A stretch of 64,000 nt of DNA. Origin: Patulibacter minatonensis DSM 18081. Its GTDB lineage: Bacteria; Actinomycetota; Thermoleophilia; Solirubrobacterales; Solirubrobacteraceae. The notes beneath the pieces were generated by a model, which saw only the letters and a list, made by a program, of their open reading frames with translations, did no database searches and was not told the origin of the DNA. Below are positions 1 through 29,894 of the stretch, piece by piece. The translations under genes and the position numbers were made by a program. The DNA lies in contig NZ_KI912613.1 of the NCBI RefSeq assembly GCF_000519325.1, forward strand, positions 3,987,859-4,051,858, given 5' to 3'. The number at the start of each line of letters is the position of its first letter. Within the stretch, counting starts at the first letter, position 1.

Positions 1-2
1 GC

Positions 3-290
3 GTGCGCAACGAGCTCCTCTGCCGCCTCACCGCCGACGTCACCGGGCGCACCGTCCTGACCGGCCCGGTCGAGGGCACCGGCATGGGCAACGTGCTCGT
101 GCAGCTCCGCGCCGCCGGCGAGGTCGGCTCGCTCGCAGAGCTGCGCGCCGTCGCCGCCGCGTCCGCCGCGCCCCGCGCGTACGAGCCCGCCGGCGACCGC
201 GCCGCGGCCGACGACCTGTACCGCCGCTTCCTCCGGGTCGCGGACCTCGCCCCGCCCGCCCGGGCCGCGACACCCACCCCTTCCGCATGA
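3..290 (+). CDS. rhaB: Rhamnulokinase, C-terminal fragment (cut by window edge)
   Basis: Only the last 95 residues are in the window; the gene begins upstream. The segment opens with RNELLCRLTADVTGR, then a GPVEGTGMGNVLVQLRAAGE stretch. Both are typical of the final ATP-binding lobe of FGGY-family sugar kinases, in particular rhamnulokinase, which phosphorylates L-rhamnulose at C1. The next gene is L-rhamnose isomerase and the one after that the rhamnulose-1-phosphate aldolase fusion, which fixes the substrate as rhamnulose rather than xylulose or glycerol. The stop overlaps an ATG of the next gene (ATGA at 287-290), consistent with one operon. The ~30 residues at the C-terminus are Ala/Pro rich and poorly conserved. 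Confidence 0.8.
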   Translation: MRNELLCRLTADVTGRTVLTGPVEGTGMGNVLVQLRAAGEVGSLAELRAVAAASAAPRAYEPAGDRAAADDLYRRFLRVADLAPPARAATPTPSA

Positions 291-25207: not shown

Positions 25208-26311
25208 GTGATCCGGTTTGACGCGGTAACCAAGCGCTACCCGGACGGCACGGTCGCCGTCGACTCCCTGGAGCTGACCGCGGCCTCCGGCCAGATCACG
25301 GTCCTCGTCGGGCCATCCGGCTGCGGCAAGACCACGAGCCTCCGGATGATCAACCGGATGATCGAGCCGACCTCCGGCACGATCTGGCTGGACGACACCG
25401 ACACCGCCTCGATGGCGACCCACGAGCTGCGGCGTCAGATCGGCTACGTCATCCAACACGCCGGGCTGTTCCCGCACCGGACGATCGTCGACAACATCGC
25501 GACCGTGCCGTTCCTGCTGGGGACCGACAAGAAGGAGGCCCGGAAGACGGCGCTGGAGCTCCTCGAGCGCGTCGGCCTGCCGCCCCACTTCGCCAAGCGG
25601 TACCCGGCCCAGCTCTCCGGCGGACAGCAACAGCGCGTGGGCGTGGCCCGGGCACTCGCCGCGGACCCGCCCGTGATGCTGATGGACGAGCCCTTCAGCG
25701 CGGTGGACCCCGTCGTCCGCGAGCAGCTGCAGGACGAGTTCCTGCGCCTGCAGCAGGAGCTCGGCAAGACGATCGTGTTCGTGACGCACGACATCGACGA
25801 GGCGATCAAGCTCGGTGACCAGGTTGCGGTGCTGCGGGTCGGCGGGCATCTCGCCCAGCTCGCCTCCCCGGTCGAGCTCCTCAGCCGGCCGATCGACGCG
25901 TTCGTCGCCGGCTTCGTCGGGCGGGACCGCGGCTACCGCGCGCTCGGCTTCACCACCGCGGGGACCCTGTCGACCCGCGGCGAGCCGACCGTCACCCTCG
26001 GCGCGGCCATCCCGAAGGGGACCGACACCGACACCTGGCTGCTGGTCGTGGACGCGCAGCAGGCCCCGCAGGGCTGGCTCGACCTCGGCGCGGACTTCAC
26101 CGGCCACGAGACCGTCTCCGACGAGCTGCTCTACCGCGGCGGCACCCTGGCCACCCAGGGCGGCACCCTGCGGGCCGCGCTCGACGCCTGCCTGTCCTCA
26201 CCGTCGGGCCGGGGCGTCGTGGTCGACGACGGCGGCGCGCTCATCGGCTCGGTGACGGCGCGCGAGGTGCTCGAGCTGATCGAGGCGCGCGAGACGGAGC
26301 GTCAGCCGTGA
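25208..26311 (+). CDS. opuCA: Osmoprotectant (glycine betaine/choline type) ABC transporter ATPase
   Basis: A 367-residue ATPase of the OpuC/OpuB importer class. Walker A GPSGCGKTT is near residue 36, the signature LSGGQQQRVGVARALA near 138, Walker B VMLMDEPF, and the H-loop VTHDIDEA. The C-terminal ~110 residues end in a single CBS-like unit (GVVVDDGGALIGSVTAREVLEL). In related transporters CBS pairs sense ionic strength or bind c-di-AMP; only one unit is obvious here. GTG 25208 has a good AGGAG Shine-Dalgarno just upstream. It is the first gene of a five-gene operon joined by 4-bp overlaps. Confidence 0.92.
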   Translation: MIRFDAVTKRYPDGTVAVDSLELTAASGQITVLVGPSGCGKTTSLRMINRMIEPTSGTIWLDDTDTASMATHELRRQIGYVIQHAGLFPHRTIVDNIATVPFLLGTDKKEARKTALELLERVGLPPHFAKRYPAQLSGGQQQRVGVARALAADPPVMLMDEPFSAVDPVVREQLQDEFLRLQQELGKTIVFVTHDIDEAIKLGDQVAVLRVGGHLAQLASPVELLSRPIDAFVAGFVGRDRGYRALGFTTAGTLSTRGEPTVTLGAAIPKGTDTDTWLLVVDAQQAPQGWLDLGADFTGHETVSDELLYRGGTLATQGGTLRAALDACLSSPSGRGVVVDDGGALIGSVTAREVLELIEARETERQP

Positions 26312-27006
26312 CCGTCCTGGCCGACAGCACGAGCTCGTCGCCGCTGCACTTCGCCCAGTACTTCCTCGACCACAGCAGCGAGGACCTCCGCCTGCTCTGG
26401 TCCCACACGTGGCTGTCGGTGGTGCCGGTGGTGATCGGGCTGCTGATCGCCCTGCCGCTCGGGTGGACCGCCCGCCGCTACCGGTGGACGTACCCGCCGA
26501 TCATCTCGATCACCGGCCTGCTGTACACGATCCCGTCGATCGCGCTGTTCGTGATGGTCCCCCCGCTCCTGGGGCTGGACACCCTCGACCCGCTCCAGGT
26601 GCCGATAGCCCTGACCGTCTACTCGGTCGCGCTGCTCGTCCGGGTCGTGGCCGACGGCCTCGCCTCGGTCCCGGAGGACACCGTCCAGGCCGCCACCGCC
26701 CTCGGCTTCCGGCCCGTCGAGCGGTTCTTCAAGGTCGAGCTGCCGATCGCGGTCCCGGTGATCGCGGCCGGCCTGCGCGTGGCGGTGGTGTCGAACGTCA
26801 GCATCGTCGCGGTCGCGGGCACCATCGGCCTCTCGAACCTGGGCCAGCTCTTCACCCAGGGGTTCCAGCTCTCCACGCCCGACGCGTACTACCCGCCGAT
26901 CGTGCTGGGCATCGTGCTCTGCGTGCTGCTCGCGGTCGTGCTCGACCTCGCGGTCGTCGGGCTCAACCGGTTGCTGACGCCCTGGCGAAGGGCGGTGCCG
27001 TCGTGA
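26308..27006 (+). CDS. opuCB: Osmoprotectant ABC transporter permease 1
   Basis: A 232-residue inner-membrane permease (BPD_transp_1 type). After a cytoplasmic N-terminus with LLWSHTWLSVVPVVIGLLIALPLG there are about six membrane spans; the coupling-helix region is EDTVQAATALGFRPVERFFKVELP, the EAA-like loop that docks on the ATPase. The GTG start overlaps the opuCA stop and its own stop overlaps the next permease start, so stoichiometry is probably set by coupled translation. Together with the second permease it forms the heterodimeric pore typical of OpuC, unlike ProU, which has a single permease. Confidence 0.92.
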   Translation: MTVLADSTSSSPLHFAQYFLDHSSEDLRLLWSHTWLSVVPVVIGLLIALPLGWTARRYRWTYPPIISITGLLYTIPSIALFVMVPPLLGLDTLDPLQVPIALTVYSVALLVRVVADGLASVPEDTVQAATALGFRPVERFFKVELPIAVPVIAAGLRVAVVSNVSIVAVAGTIGLSNLGQLFTQGFQLSTPDAYYPPIVLGIVLCVLLAVVLDLAVVGLNRLLTPWRRAVPS

Positions 27007-27764
27007 TCGCCGACGTCGTCACCTGGCTGACGGACTCGTCGCACTGGACCGACACGAAGTTCGACACGGGCATCTGGACCCAGCTCCTGGCCCATCTGAA
27101 GTTCGTCGGGATCGCCCTGGCGATCGCGCTGCTGATCGCCCTGCCGCTCGGCCTGTTCATCGGCCACACGCGGCGGTGGGGCTGGCTCGTCGCCGGCGCC
27201 AACGCGCTGCGTGCCCTGCCGACGGTCGGCGTCCTCGTGCTGCTGACCGTGATCATCTCGCCGCACTTCCAGGGGCGCACCGACACCGGCTTCCTGATCC
27301 CGACCGAGATCGTCCTCGTCCTCCTCGCGGTCCCGCCGATCCTGTCGAACACGTACGCCGGCGTGCAGAACGTCGAACCGGGGATCCGGGACGCGGCGTT
27401 CGGGATGGGGATGACCGGCCCGCAGGTGCTCCTCCGGGTCGAGTTCCCGATCAGCCTGCCGCTGATCTTCTCCGGCGTCCGCAGCGCCACCCTGCAGCTG
27501 ATCGCCACGGCGACGGTCGCCTCCTACCTGCCCCTGGGCGGTCTGGGCCGCTTTATCTACGACGGCCTGGCCCAGCAGGACTACCCGCAGATGATCGGCG
27601 GAGGCGTGCTCGTCGCGGCACTGGCGCTCCTCACCGACCTCGTCCTGGCGACGATCCAGCGGTACGTCGTGTCCCGCGGCATCACCCGGCGCTTCTCGTC
27701 CAAGCAGGCCGTCCCGGACTCGCGGATCGCCGCGGTCCACGAGACGGACGGCGCGCACGCCTGA
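27003..27764 (+). CDS. opuCD: Osmoprotectant ABC transporter permease 2
   Basis: A 253-residue permease paralogous to the preceding one. It has an early span LKFVGIALAIALLIALPLGLFIG, ALRALPTVGVLVLLTVIIS, and the EAA-like coupling segment EPGIRDAAFGMGMTGPQVLLRVEFPISLPL. The extra ~20 residues before the first span and the basic C-terminus (RFSSKQAVPDSR) distinguish it from its partner. GTG 27003 overlaps the upstream stop by 4 bp. The first binding protein starts 75 bp downstream. Confidence 0.92.
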   Translation: MIADVVTWLTDSSHWTDTKFDTGIWTQLLAHLKFVGIALAIALLIALPLGLFIGHTRRWGWLVAGANALRALPTVGVLVLLTVIISPHFQGRTDTGFLIPTEIVLVLLAVPPILSNTYAGVQNVEPGIRDAAFGMGMTGPQVLLRVEFPISLPLIFSGVRSATLQLIATATVASYLPLGGLGRFIYDGLAQQDYPQMIGGGVLVAALALLTDLVLATIQRYVVSRGITRRFSSKQAVPDSRIAAVHETDGAHA

Positions 27765-27839
27765 TCCGGCGCGGCGCCGCGGACCCACGGCCGCCGCGCC
27801 ACCCACCTTCCACCCAGCACCCCACCACAAGGAACAGAC

Positions 27840-28799
27840 ATGACCTCCAGGATCCTGGCCTCCGGCGCCGCCGCCGCCGTCCTCGCCCTAGGCGTCACCG
27901 CCTGCGGCTCCGACAGCTCGGACGACACCACCACGGGCGGCTCGTCGTCGGCCGGTGGCGCGACCATCGCCAGCAAGTTCATCTTCGGCGGCGCCGCCGA
28001 GTTCAAGACCCGGGGAGACGGCCTCGACGGCCTGAAGCGGAACTACGGCGTCGAGTTCGGCAAGTTCCGGGTCACCGACACCGGCGGGCCGGTCACCGTC
28101 AACGCGCTGAAGAACGGTCAGGTCGACGCCGCCAACGTCTTCAGCACCGATCCGGCGATCAAGGCGAACGGCTTCGTGATCCTCGCGGACCCGAAGAGCA
28201 ACTTCGCGGCGCAGAACGTCGTCCCGATCATCACGAAGAGCAAGGCGAGCGACGGCGTCAAGACGACGCTGGACGGCATCTCCGCCAAGCTGACCACCGC
28301 CGGCCTGAGCGACCTGGTCTCCAAGGTGCAGGTCGACAAGGAGGATCCCGACGCCGTCGCCAAGGGCTGGCTGTCCCAGAACGGGCTGTCCAGCGCCGGC
28401 ACCGCCGCGAAGGGCGTCAAGCTGACCGTCGGGTCGGCGAACTTCCCCGAGAACGTCGTCCTGGCCGAGATCTACGCCGAGGCGCTGAAGGCCCAGGGCG
28501 CGTCGATCAAGACGAAGCTCAACATCGGCAGCCGCGAGAAGTACTACCCGGCGCTCAAGAGCGGCTCGCTCGACCTCTTCCCGGAGTACAGCGGCACGAT
28601 CCTGACGTACCTCGACAAGAAGGCCACCGCGTCCAAGCCGGACGACGTCTACACGGCGCTGCAGGCCGCGCTGCCGTCGAACCTGACCGCGCTGAACAAG
28701 TCCGACGCCCAGGACAGCGACACCGTGGTGGTCACGAAGGCCACCGCCGACAAGTTCGGCCTGAAGACGATCGCCGACCTGGCCAAGCCCGCCGAGTGA
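27840..28799 (+). CDS. OpuC-type osmoprotectant-binding lipoprotein, circularly permuted (copy 1)
   Basis: A 319-residue lipoprotein; lipobox LGVTAC puts the lipidated Cys at residue 22. The ligand-binding lobes are in reversed order relative to OpuCC. Residues ~40-185 (KFIFGGAAEFKTRGDGLDGL, DTGGPVTVNALKNGQVDAANVF, QVDKEDPDAVAKGWLSQNGL) are the part that normally forms the C-terminal half. Residues ~194-319 (LTVGSANFPENVVLAEIYAE, SREKYYPALKSGSLDLFPEY, ending in LKTIADLAKPAE) are normally the N-terminal half. The protein ends exactly where the normal chain would continue into KFVFGG. All ligand-lobe blocks remain, so binding is probably kept. AAGG at 27830-27833 precedes ATG 27840. Confidence 0.88.
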   Translation: MTSRILASGAAAAVLALGVTACGSDSSDDTTTGGSSSAGGATIASKFIFGGAAEFKTRGDGLDGLKRNYGVEFGKFRVTDTGGPVTVNALKNGQVDAANVFSTDPAIKANGFVILADPKSNFAAQNVVPIITKSKASDGVKTTLDGISAKLTTAGLSDLVSKVQVDKEDPDAVAKGWLSQNGLSSAGTAAKGVKLTVGSANFPENVVLAEIYAEALKAQGASIKTKLNIGSREKYYPALKSGSLDLFPEYSGTILTYLDKKATASKPDDVYTALQAALPSNLTALNKSDAQDSDTVVVTKATADKFGLKTIADLAKPAE

Positions 28800-28805
28800 T
28801 CCGCG

Positions 28806-28837
28806 GGTGCCGGAGCGCCCCGGGGCGCTCCGGCACC
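28806..28837 (+). terminator. Perfect 32-bp palindrome after binding protein 1
   Basis: GGTGCCGGAGCGCCCC and its exact complement, starting 7 bp after the stop, with no T-tract. It probably attenuates or ends opuC transcription, or stabilises the upstream mRNA, before the second binding-protein gene. Confidence 0.65.
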
Positions 28838-28940
28838 TCCTGCCCGAGGCGGACGCCCCGCGTCTGTCCATCCGTCGATGCCGACGGGTCCCCGTCGACG
28901 TCTAGGCTTCCCGGAGTCCCAACGACTCGATGGAGCACCA

Positions 28941-29894
28941 ATGAACATCAGGATCCTGGCGACCGGCGCGGCGACCGCGGCACTCGCCCTCGGCGTCGCC
29001 GCCTGCGGCTCGGACAGCTCGGACGACGGCGGCGGCTCGACCTCGGGCGGCGGCGCGACGATCGCGAGCAAGCTCATCATGGGCGGTCCACCCGAGTTCA
29101 AGACGCGGACCGACGGCCTTCCCGGCCTGAAGAGGAACTACGGCGTCGAGTTCGGCAAGTACACGGTCACCGACACCGGTGGCCCGGTCACGGTCAACGC
29201 GCTGAAGAACGGCCAGATCGAGGCCGCGGACCTCTTCACCACCGATCCGTCGATCGCGGCCAACACGTTCGTCATCCTCGCCGACCCGAAGAACAACTTC
29301 GCGGCCCAGGACGTCCTGCCGATCATCAACAAGTCGAAGGTCACCGACGGCGTCAAGTCGACCCTGAACGGCATCTCGGCCAAGCTGACCACCACGGGCC
29401 TCGGGGAGCTGGTCTCCCGGGTCCAGGTCGACAAGCAGAGCCCCGGCGCCGTCGCCAAGGGGTGGCTGTCCGAGAACGGCCTGGACGCGACGGGCACCGC
29501 GGCGAAGGGCAGCACGCTGACCGTCGGGTCGGCGAACTTCCCCGAGAACGTCGTCCTCGCCGAGATCTACGCCACGGCGCTGAAGGCCCAGGGCGCGACG
29601 ATCAGGACGAAGCTCAACATCGGCAGCCGCGAGAAGTACTACCCGGCGCTCAAGAGCGGCTCCCTCGACCTCTTCCCCGAGTACAGCGGCACGATCCTCA
29701 CCTACCTCGACAAGGACACGACGGCGACGACGTCCGACGAGGTCTTCAAGGCGCTCGAGGCCGCGCTGCCGTCGAACCTCGTCGCCCTCGACAAGTCGGC
29801 CGCCCAGGACAGCGACGCGATCGTCGTCACCAAGGCCACGGCCGACAAGTACGGCCTGAAGACGATCGCGGACCTGGCCAAGCCCGCCGAGTAG
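28941..29894 (+). CDS. OpuC-type osmoprotectant-binding lipoprotein, circularly permuted (copy 2)
   Basis: A 317-residue tandem paralogue of the previous gene with the same swapped lobe order, a lipobox (LGVAAC) and many identical codon blocks, notably around LTVGSANFPENVVLAEIYA. It differs in ligand-lobe details such as FTTDPSIAANTF in place of FSTDPAIKANGF, so it may bind a different betaine. ATG 28941 follows GGAG at 28931-28934. It lies behind the 32-bp palindrome and a 103-bp gap, so it may also have its own promoter and expression level. A long stem-loop after the stop separates it from the converging gatD. Confidence 0.88.
   Translation: MNIRILATGAATAALALGVAACGSDSSDDGGGSTSGGGATIASKLIMGGPPEFKTRTDGLPGLKRNYGVEFGKYTVTDTGGPVTVNALKNGQIEAADLFTTDPSIAANTFVILADPKNNFAAQDVLPIINKSKVTDGVKSTLNGISAKLTTTGLGELVSRVQVDKQSPGAVAKGWLSENGLDATGTAAKGSTLTVGSANFPENVVLAEIYATALKAQGATIRTKLNIGSREKYYPALKSGSLDLFPEYSGTILTYLDKDTTATTSDEVFKALEAALPSNLVALDKSAAQDSDAIVVTKATADKYGLKTIADLAKPAE

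What the first reader, a model, noticed from the sequence alone, without database searches (positions are those of the whole stretch)
27840..29894. Two tandem osmoprotectant-binding proteins with circularly permuted lobes
In canonical OpuC binding proteins the order is LTVG..F (lobe with E-Y block) first, then the -DLA- linker into KFVFGGPPE, then VAK.WL. Here both copies begin with the KFIFGG/KLIMGG half and end with the LTVGSANFPENV half, stopping exactly at the DLAKP hinge. The break and the new junction fall in loops, so the fold can be kept. Lobe dislocation is known between B. subtilis OpuAC and E. coli ProX; I do not know of it in the OpuCC group. Both copies share it, so the permutation predates their duplication.
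Basis: partly seen in the sequence, partly recalled or inferred. Interest (0 to 1): 0.75.

Follow-up and report, generated by a model that had tools for sequence, protein, structure and literature searches.

The report
Repeatedly permuted ABC-transporter binding proteins
Two neighbouring nutrient-capturing proteins of a Patulibacter-type bacterium have the halves of their chain in swapped order, and genome surveys show that this swap has arisen several times among their relatives, which gives a rare natural series for studying how proteins survive circular permutation.

Summary
Both genes (27840-28799 and 28941-29894) encode lipoprotein signal + second half (B) + ~10-residue linker + first half (A) of an OpuC/OsmF-type (PF04069) substrate-binding protein; canonical relatives read A-B. 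AlphaFold2 folds the permuted chain well (pLDDT 95.5), and its best solved match is B. subtilis OpuAC (Z 19.0, 246 residues), which already has this order. The halves are not the lobes: the cut lies inside lobe D2, not at the hinge. The B-A order is not peculiar to this locus. A B-A clade (18 proteins, 100/100 support) with the same ATPase-permease-permease operon runs through Patulibacter, Nocardioidaceae, Frankia-type and other Actinomycetota, sister to canonical A-B proteins of Pseudonocardiaceae. Other B-A proteins lie elsewhere in the tree; a single origin is rejected (AU p=2.7e-51), and at least four changes of order are forced. One pair within one family has 72% identical halves in opposite orders. 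A second cut point (~30 residues further) and an A-B-A-B tandem fusion also occur. 'Osmoprotectant' is unproven: the quaternary-ammonium cage is mostly lost, and some canonical relatives sit in histidine-utilisation clusters. Verdict: new variant of a known kind; the recurrence is the interesting part.

The parts
25208..26311 (+). ABC transporter ATPase of the operon (likely GTG start)
   Evidence: PF00005 E=4e-36; 68-88% identical ATPase at the same place in B-A relatives
26308..27006 (+). permease 1
   Evidence: PF00528 E=9e-18; conserved in relatives
27003..27764 (+). permease 2
   Evidence: The Pfam scan at 26999-27761 was out of frame and gave nothing; the in-frame protein matches permeases at the same place in relatives, 66-84% in the B-A clade
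27840..28799 (+). substrate-binding lipoprotein copy 1, order signal-B-linker-A
27840..27902 (+). copy 1 signal peptide, up to the residue before the lipobox cysteine (residue 22)
   Evidence: direct reading...LGVTAC
27969..28388 (+). copy 1 half B (canonical C-terminal half)
   Evidence: OpuAC profile 114-257; half-B HMM
28389..28418 (+). copy 1 new linker SSAGTAAKGV joining the old C and N termini
   Evidence: direct reading and junction table
28419..28796 (+). copy 1 half A (canonical N-terminal half), ends at DLAKPAE
   Evidence: OpuAC profile 2-117; half-A HMM
28941..29894 (+). substrate-binding lipoprotein copy 2, 80% identical to copy 1, order signal-B-linker-A
29064..29483 (+). copy 2 half B
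29484..29513 (+). copy 2 linker DATGTAAKGS
29514..29891 (+). copy 2 half A

Best explanation
The two proteins are lipid-anchored substrate-binding proteins of one ABC importer (ATPase, two permeases, two binding proteins) of the OpuC/OsmF/EgtU branch of PF04069, in circularly permuted order. The chain starts inside lobe D2, runs through old half B, crosses a ~10-residue linker joining the old termini in D1, and ends with old half A back in D2. The Venus-flytrap fold and pocket are kept. Most likely route, inferred: tandem duplication of an A-B gene, in-frame fusion, and loss of the outer halves, leaving B1-linker-A2. The permuted operon spread among Actinomycetota and reached Patulibacter; the binding-protein gene was then duplicated. 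The same permutation happened several times independently in related lineages. The ligand is probably a small cationic or zwitterionic metabolite, possibly an amino acid such as histidine, rather than a classical quaternary-ammonium osmoprotectant. Shown: order, recurrence, conserved operon, pocket residues. Predicted: fold. Inferred: route, transfer, ligand.
For: Order by Pfam, phmmer and half-HMMs. AF2 of the permuted chain: pLDDT 95.5, pTM 0.89. VIA-align: BsOpuAC 2b4m Z 19.0, rmsd 3.8 over 246 residues, full length; next non-OpuAC Z 10.6; Foldseek top five all BsOpuAC. 18-protein B-A clade 100/100, sister to canonical Pseudonocardiaceae proteins 98/90. One origin of all B-A rejected, AU p=2.7e-51; window clade plus second B-A clade rejected, p=6e-5; at least 4 changes forced by starred branches. 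L109 (B-A) against L110 (A-B), same family: halves 72%/72% identical. Linkers can resemble the canonical N-terminal spacer (L107 VPDGPTITIGAQDF, L110 VPDGPTIVLGAQDF), and B-A N termini keep the canonical connector (VASKL; L111 PVASKLVLGG). Tandem A-B-A-B fusion exists in family f12. Pocket identical at the six key positions in 18/18 and near-identical in canonical sisters. Same operon in relatives.
Against: No experiment. The tool returns no coordinates and refuses altered sequences, so a rotated superposition on a canonical OpuC structure was not made. rmsd to OpuAC is large (3.8 A); domain opening is a possible reason, not tested. The duplication-fusion route rests on linker resemblance and on an A-B-A-B form that is not the direct ancestor of the window clade. 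The tree has long branches; the orphan clade L014-L017 changes place between half-A, half-B and joint trees, and the direction of change (gain against reversal) is not given by the tree.
Confidence: 0.87

Rival explanations
1. One ancient permutation, with the scattered canonical A-B proteins being reversals or the tree being wrong; no recurrence.
For: The B-A N-terminal motif (TIASKL and the like) looks alike in several B-A clades; long branches and short alignment (263 columns).
Against: The motif is also present in canonical connectors (L099 PVASQLVLGG, L111 PVASKLVLGG, L115 VASQLVLGG), so it is inherited, not shared-derived. One B-A clade is rejected. L109 and L110/L113 share a family with ~70% identical halves in opposite order; even a reversal would be a fresh permutation.
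Confidence: 0.08
2. Ordinary osmoprotectant (glycine betaine/choline) uptake system as the annotation suggests, merely permuted.
For: PF04069, weak NCBIfam OsmF match (85 bits against a cut-off of 400); OpuC-like operon layout.
Against: EgtUC/OpuC cage positions F293, N339, Y341, Y419, Y443 read Y, D, D, F, Q in 18/18. Some close canonical relatives sit beside HutH/HutU/HutG/HutC/HutD genes; L054 HutH passes its equivalog cut-off (667 against 539 bits).
Confidence: 0.3
3. Direct common descent with B. subtilis OpuAC, i.e. the window proteins are OpuA-type proteins.
For: Same B-A order and best structural match.
Against: Sequence relatives are the OpuC/OsmF/EgtU proteins; identity to OpuAC in the structural alignment is 15%; the mature chain has a single Trp, so the Trp cage of OpuAC (PMC9732360) is absent; the clade nests inside A-B proteins.
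Confidence: 0.03

Closest known systems
B. subtilis OpuAC (2b4l, 2b4m) compared with E. coli ProX and A. fulgidus ProX
   Same: Same B-A order ending in the same D2 loop; best structural match of the model. The circular-permutation relation among these glycine-betaine-binding proteins was reported in PMC2395249 (read).
   Different: OpuAC is a distant Trp-cage protein (15% identity); here the permutation is inside the OpuC/OsmF/EgtU branch and occurred separately, several times.
Treponema pallidum TpMglB-2 (Tp0684), PMC4990184
   Same: Natural circularly permuted, lipid-anchored ABC binding protein that keeps ligand binding and domain closure.
   Different: Type I, cluster B sugar-binding protein; different fold class, cut point and ligand.
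S. pneumoniae EgtUC and B. subtilis OpuBC/OpuCC
   Same: Closest solved sequences (E about 1e-20 to 1e-13); type II flytrap; conserved Arg (R379) kept.
   Different: A-B order; aromatic cage largely not conserved in the window proteins.
Canonical A-B operons of Actinokineospora/Pseudonocardia (L051-L064) and hut-linked operons on plasmids (L098, L099)
   Same: Same ATPase-permease-permease-binding protein layout; ATPase 60-65% identical in L051-L064; same pocket residues in most of the sister set.
   Different: Binding protein in A-B order; some lie in histidine-utilisation clusters.

Membership tests
PF04069 (OpuAC) substrate-binding domain | Pfam match over the curated cut-off | tested here: met
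   164.7 and 159.4 bits against 21.2, in two reversed stretches
OpuC/OpuB/EgtU (subcluster F-III) binding proteins | Sequence relationship over both halves | tested here: met
   phmmer to EgtUC, OpuCC, AfProX, OsmF
OpuC/OpuB/EgtU (subcluster F-III) binding proteins | A-then-B chain order | tested here: not met
   B-A in both copies
OpuC/OpuB/EgtU (subcluster F-III) binding proteins | Aromatic cage for quaternary ammonium (F293, Y341, Y419, Y443, N339 of EgtUC) | tested here: not met
   Y, D, F, Q, D at these positions, 18/18 in the clade
OpuC/OpuB/EgtU (subcluster F-III) binding proteins | Two-lobed type II flytrap fold | tested here: met
   AF2 pLDDT 95.5; full-length match to OpuAC, Z 19.0; prediction only
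OpuA-type OpuAC (B. subtilis) | B-A order | tested here: met
   Full-length collinear alignment 1..275 to 9..272
OpuA-type OpuAC (B. subtilis) | Trp-based betaine pocket | tested here: not met
   Only one Trp in each mature chain, in KGWLS near the end of half B; Trp use in OpuAC from PMC9732360
NCBIfam OsmF equivalog | Score over curated cut-off | tested here: not met
   85.1 bits against 400
Histidine (Hut) importer | Binding of histidine | not testable with these tools
   Only gene neighbourhood of relatives; own genome has no HutH-type gene

The most novel reading that the evidence does not exclude
The OpuC/OsmF-type binding proteins of Actinomycetota are a hot spot of natural circular permutation: the same D2 loop has been cut at least four separate times and a neighbouring D2 loop again, some events recent enough to leave 70%-identical pairs in opposite order, through a tandem-duplication intermediate. 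The change is under selection because it moves the lipid anchor from lobe D1 to lobe D2 and alters docking to the importer.
Probability: 0.25. Interest if true: 0.72.

Novelty: new variant of a known kind. Interest (0 to 1): 0.55.

Why it matters
Natural circular permutation is usually seen between very distant proteins, so its steps cannot be followed. Here one subfamily offers the canonical order, a tandem fusion, the permuted order and a second permuted order, including pairs ~70% identical in the halves. That makes the duplication-fusion route, the cost of permutation for folding and ligand binding, and the effect of anchoring the other lobe directly testable. It also shows that annotation by family name alone passes over both the order and the changed pocket.

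Tried and rejected
Literature searches found no report of permutation inside the OpuC group; the library lacks most subscription papers, so this is weak. The shared N-terminal motif TIASKL was considered as evidence for a single origin and rejected because canonical connectors carry it. A-B-A-B of family f12 was considered as direct ancestor and rejected: its lobes cluster with other Thermoleophilia-class A-B proteins. Ergothionase as identity of the lyase-like neighbour was considered; the solved ergothionase (6s7j) is a hit but not the best one, so not claimed. Canonical OpuC structures do not appear among the 50 VIA rows for the window model; this is expected for a sequential aligner and proves nothing alone. 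Lipobox presence does not separate the orders: found by a simple pattern in 49 of 55 A-B and 27 of 34 B-A, so anchoring alone does not explain the permutation.

Full report
WHAT IS THERE. Window 25208-29894 (+) is an ABC importer operon: ATPase, permease, permease, and two substrate-binding lipoproteins. The two binding proteins are 80% identical. In both, the Pfam OpuAC profile matches in reversed order: profile 114-257 first, then 2-114. phmmer against solved chains shows the same against EgtUC, OpuCC, AfProX and OsmF. Call the canonical first half A and the second half B; the window proteins are signal-B-linker-A. The window lies in a 5.52-Mb single-contig genome; the nearest named relative is a Patulibacter genome.

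WHERE THE CUT IS. With the EgtUC numbering (offset 229, which reproduces K242, R379, Y419 and Y443 in the alignment), A ends near residue 363 and B starts near 370. EgtUC lobe D2 spans 341-432 and D1 is 232-331 plus 445-503 (PMC9732360). So the new termini are inside D2, and the linker (SSAGTAAKGV, DATGTAAKGS) joins the old termini of D1. In the model the likely hinge strands are 85-91 and 253-257, and DLAK is at 272-275 (inference from the strand list).

FOLD. AlphaFold2 on 32 permuted sequences gives pLDDT 95.5 and pTM 0.89. Foldseek ranks five B. subtilis OpuAC chains first; VIA-align gives Z 19.0, 246 residues, rmsd 3.8 for OpuAC 2b4m, with the next protein at Z 10.6. OpuAC is known to be circularly permuted relative to the ProX proteins (PMC2395249). 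The window proteins therefore reach the OpuAC order from the OpuC side. They are not OpuAC proteins by sequence (15% identity, one Trp only).

HOW WIDESPREAD. A scan of 84,980 species genomes and surveys of 399 genomes of the class, 396 of the phylum and 148 of one order, read with half-specific HMMs, give among the loci fetched: 36 loci with B-A, 63 with A-B, 4 with A-B-A-B fused behind a permease, and 9 rows with, or (partial L105, L108) consistent with, a different permutation. Loci were the best matches to a permuted query, so these numbers are not frequencies. The window's own clade (18 rows, support 100/100) holds Patulibacter, Frankiales, Pseudonocardiales, Pseudofrankia, Marmoricola, Nocardioides, Allobranchiibius and Intrasporangiaceae; its sister is the canonical A-B clade of Pseudonocardiaceae (98/90). 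ATPase and permeases are 66-92% identical across this clade, in the same order. Since most other sampled members of the window's genus and family have only distant A-B proteins, transfer of the operon into Patulibacter is likely (inference). Single-copy relatives are B-A, so the permutation is older than the tandem duplication.

RECURRENCE. On the tree of 112 rows, built on halves put in one common order, B-A needs 7 changes and well-supported branches force at least 4. Holding all B-A together costs 354 log-likelihood units (AU p=2.7e-51); holding only the window clade and the main second B-A clade together is rejected too (p=6e-5, 97-row tree). The clearest case is L109 (B-A) with L110 and L113 (A-B) in one family: halves 69-72% identical, opposite order; L107 (B-A) against L117 (A-B) is 71%/61%. 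Direction is not given by the tree; A-B is taken as ancestral because archaeal, Bacillota and Pseudomonadota members have it (partly known from the families). Caution: the orphan clade L014-L017 moves between trees, and the backbone near the root is weak (51/95).

A SECOND CUT. L077/L101, L080/L100, L102, L103, L104 and L106 (L108 partial) start at position ~29 of B and carry the first ~29 residues of B at the C terminus. AF2 gives pLDDT 91.8; residues 1-246 match OpuAC 40-272 (Z 17.7), and residues 120-279 match EgtUC 234-397 (Z 11.3) as one canonical piece. The cut is again inside D2.

ROUTE. In family f12 A-B-A-B is fused to a permease, so tandem duplication of this domain does occur. Some B-A linkers look like the canonical N-terminal spacer (L107 VPDGPTITIG, L110 VPDGPTIVLG), and B-A N termini keep the canonical connector VAS(K/Q)L (L099, L111, L115). 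This is what duplication, fusion and loss of the outer halves would leave; it is inference.

LIGAND. Cage positions of EgtUC (F293, N339, Y341, Y419, Y443; and R379) read Y, D, D, F, Q; R in all 18 clade members and nearly so in the canonical sisters. Loss of the cage is thus older than the permutation, and the permutation left these pocket positions unchanged. Canonical relatives on plasmids sit in histidine-utilisation clusters; three Pseudonocardiaceae loci have HutH and HutU downstream. Ten of the window-clade loci have a divergent lyase-like gene upstream that lacks the Ala-Ser-Gly motif. The window genome has no such lyase. An amino-acid-type ligand, perhaps histidine, is a reasonable guess (about 0.4); osmoprotectant about 0.3.

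CLOSEST KNOWN AND NOVELTY. OpuAC against ProX, and TpMglB-2 (PMC4990184), show that permuted binding proteins exist and work. New here, as far as the held literature shows, is permutation within the OpuC/OsmF branch, its recurrence, a second cut, and closely related pairs in opposite order. I rate it a new variant of a known kind.

Noticed in passing
L077/L101, L080/L100, L102, L103, L104, L106 (L108 partial): Second permutation type: chain starts ~29 residues into half B and ends with those residues; folds well in AF2.
   Followed up: yes
L009-L012 (family f12, same class); L013 truncated: Permease fused to two complete binding domains in tandem (A-B-A-B).
   Followed up: partly
L040-L046, L048-L050, upstream of the ATPase, opposite strand: Aromatic ammonia-lyase homologue without the Ala-Ser-Gly (MIO) motif next to the permuted operon in ten loci; scores far below the HutH cut-off in the three tested.
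   Followed up: partly
L098 (Aureimonas plasmid), L099 (Klebsiella oxytoca plasmid), L054, L057, L062: Canonical relatives of the operon lie in histidine-utilisation gene clusters.
   Followed up: partly
L014-L017 (genus g15 of the window's family): B-A binding protein with plain signal peptide, no lipobox, and no transporter genes found within 1.5 kb: an orphan of unknown role.
   Followed up: no
L046 6835-7905: A distant canonical A-B binding protein directly downstream of the permuted one: both orders side by side.
   Followed up: no
L048 5932-7907: Allobranchiibius also has two tandem B-A copies, as in the window; probably a separate duplication.
   Followed up: partly
G000 C1 981247-981657 (L005): Only other PF04069 match in the window's genome, weak (29.7 bits), next to an ATPase match.
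   Followed up: no
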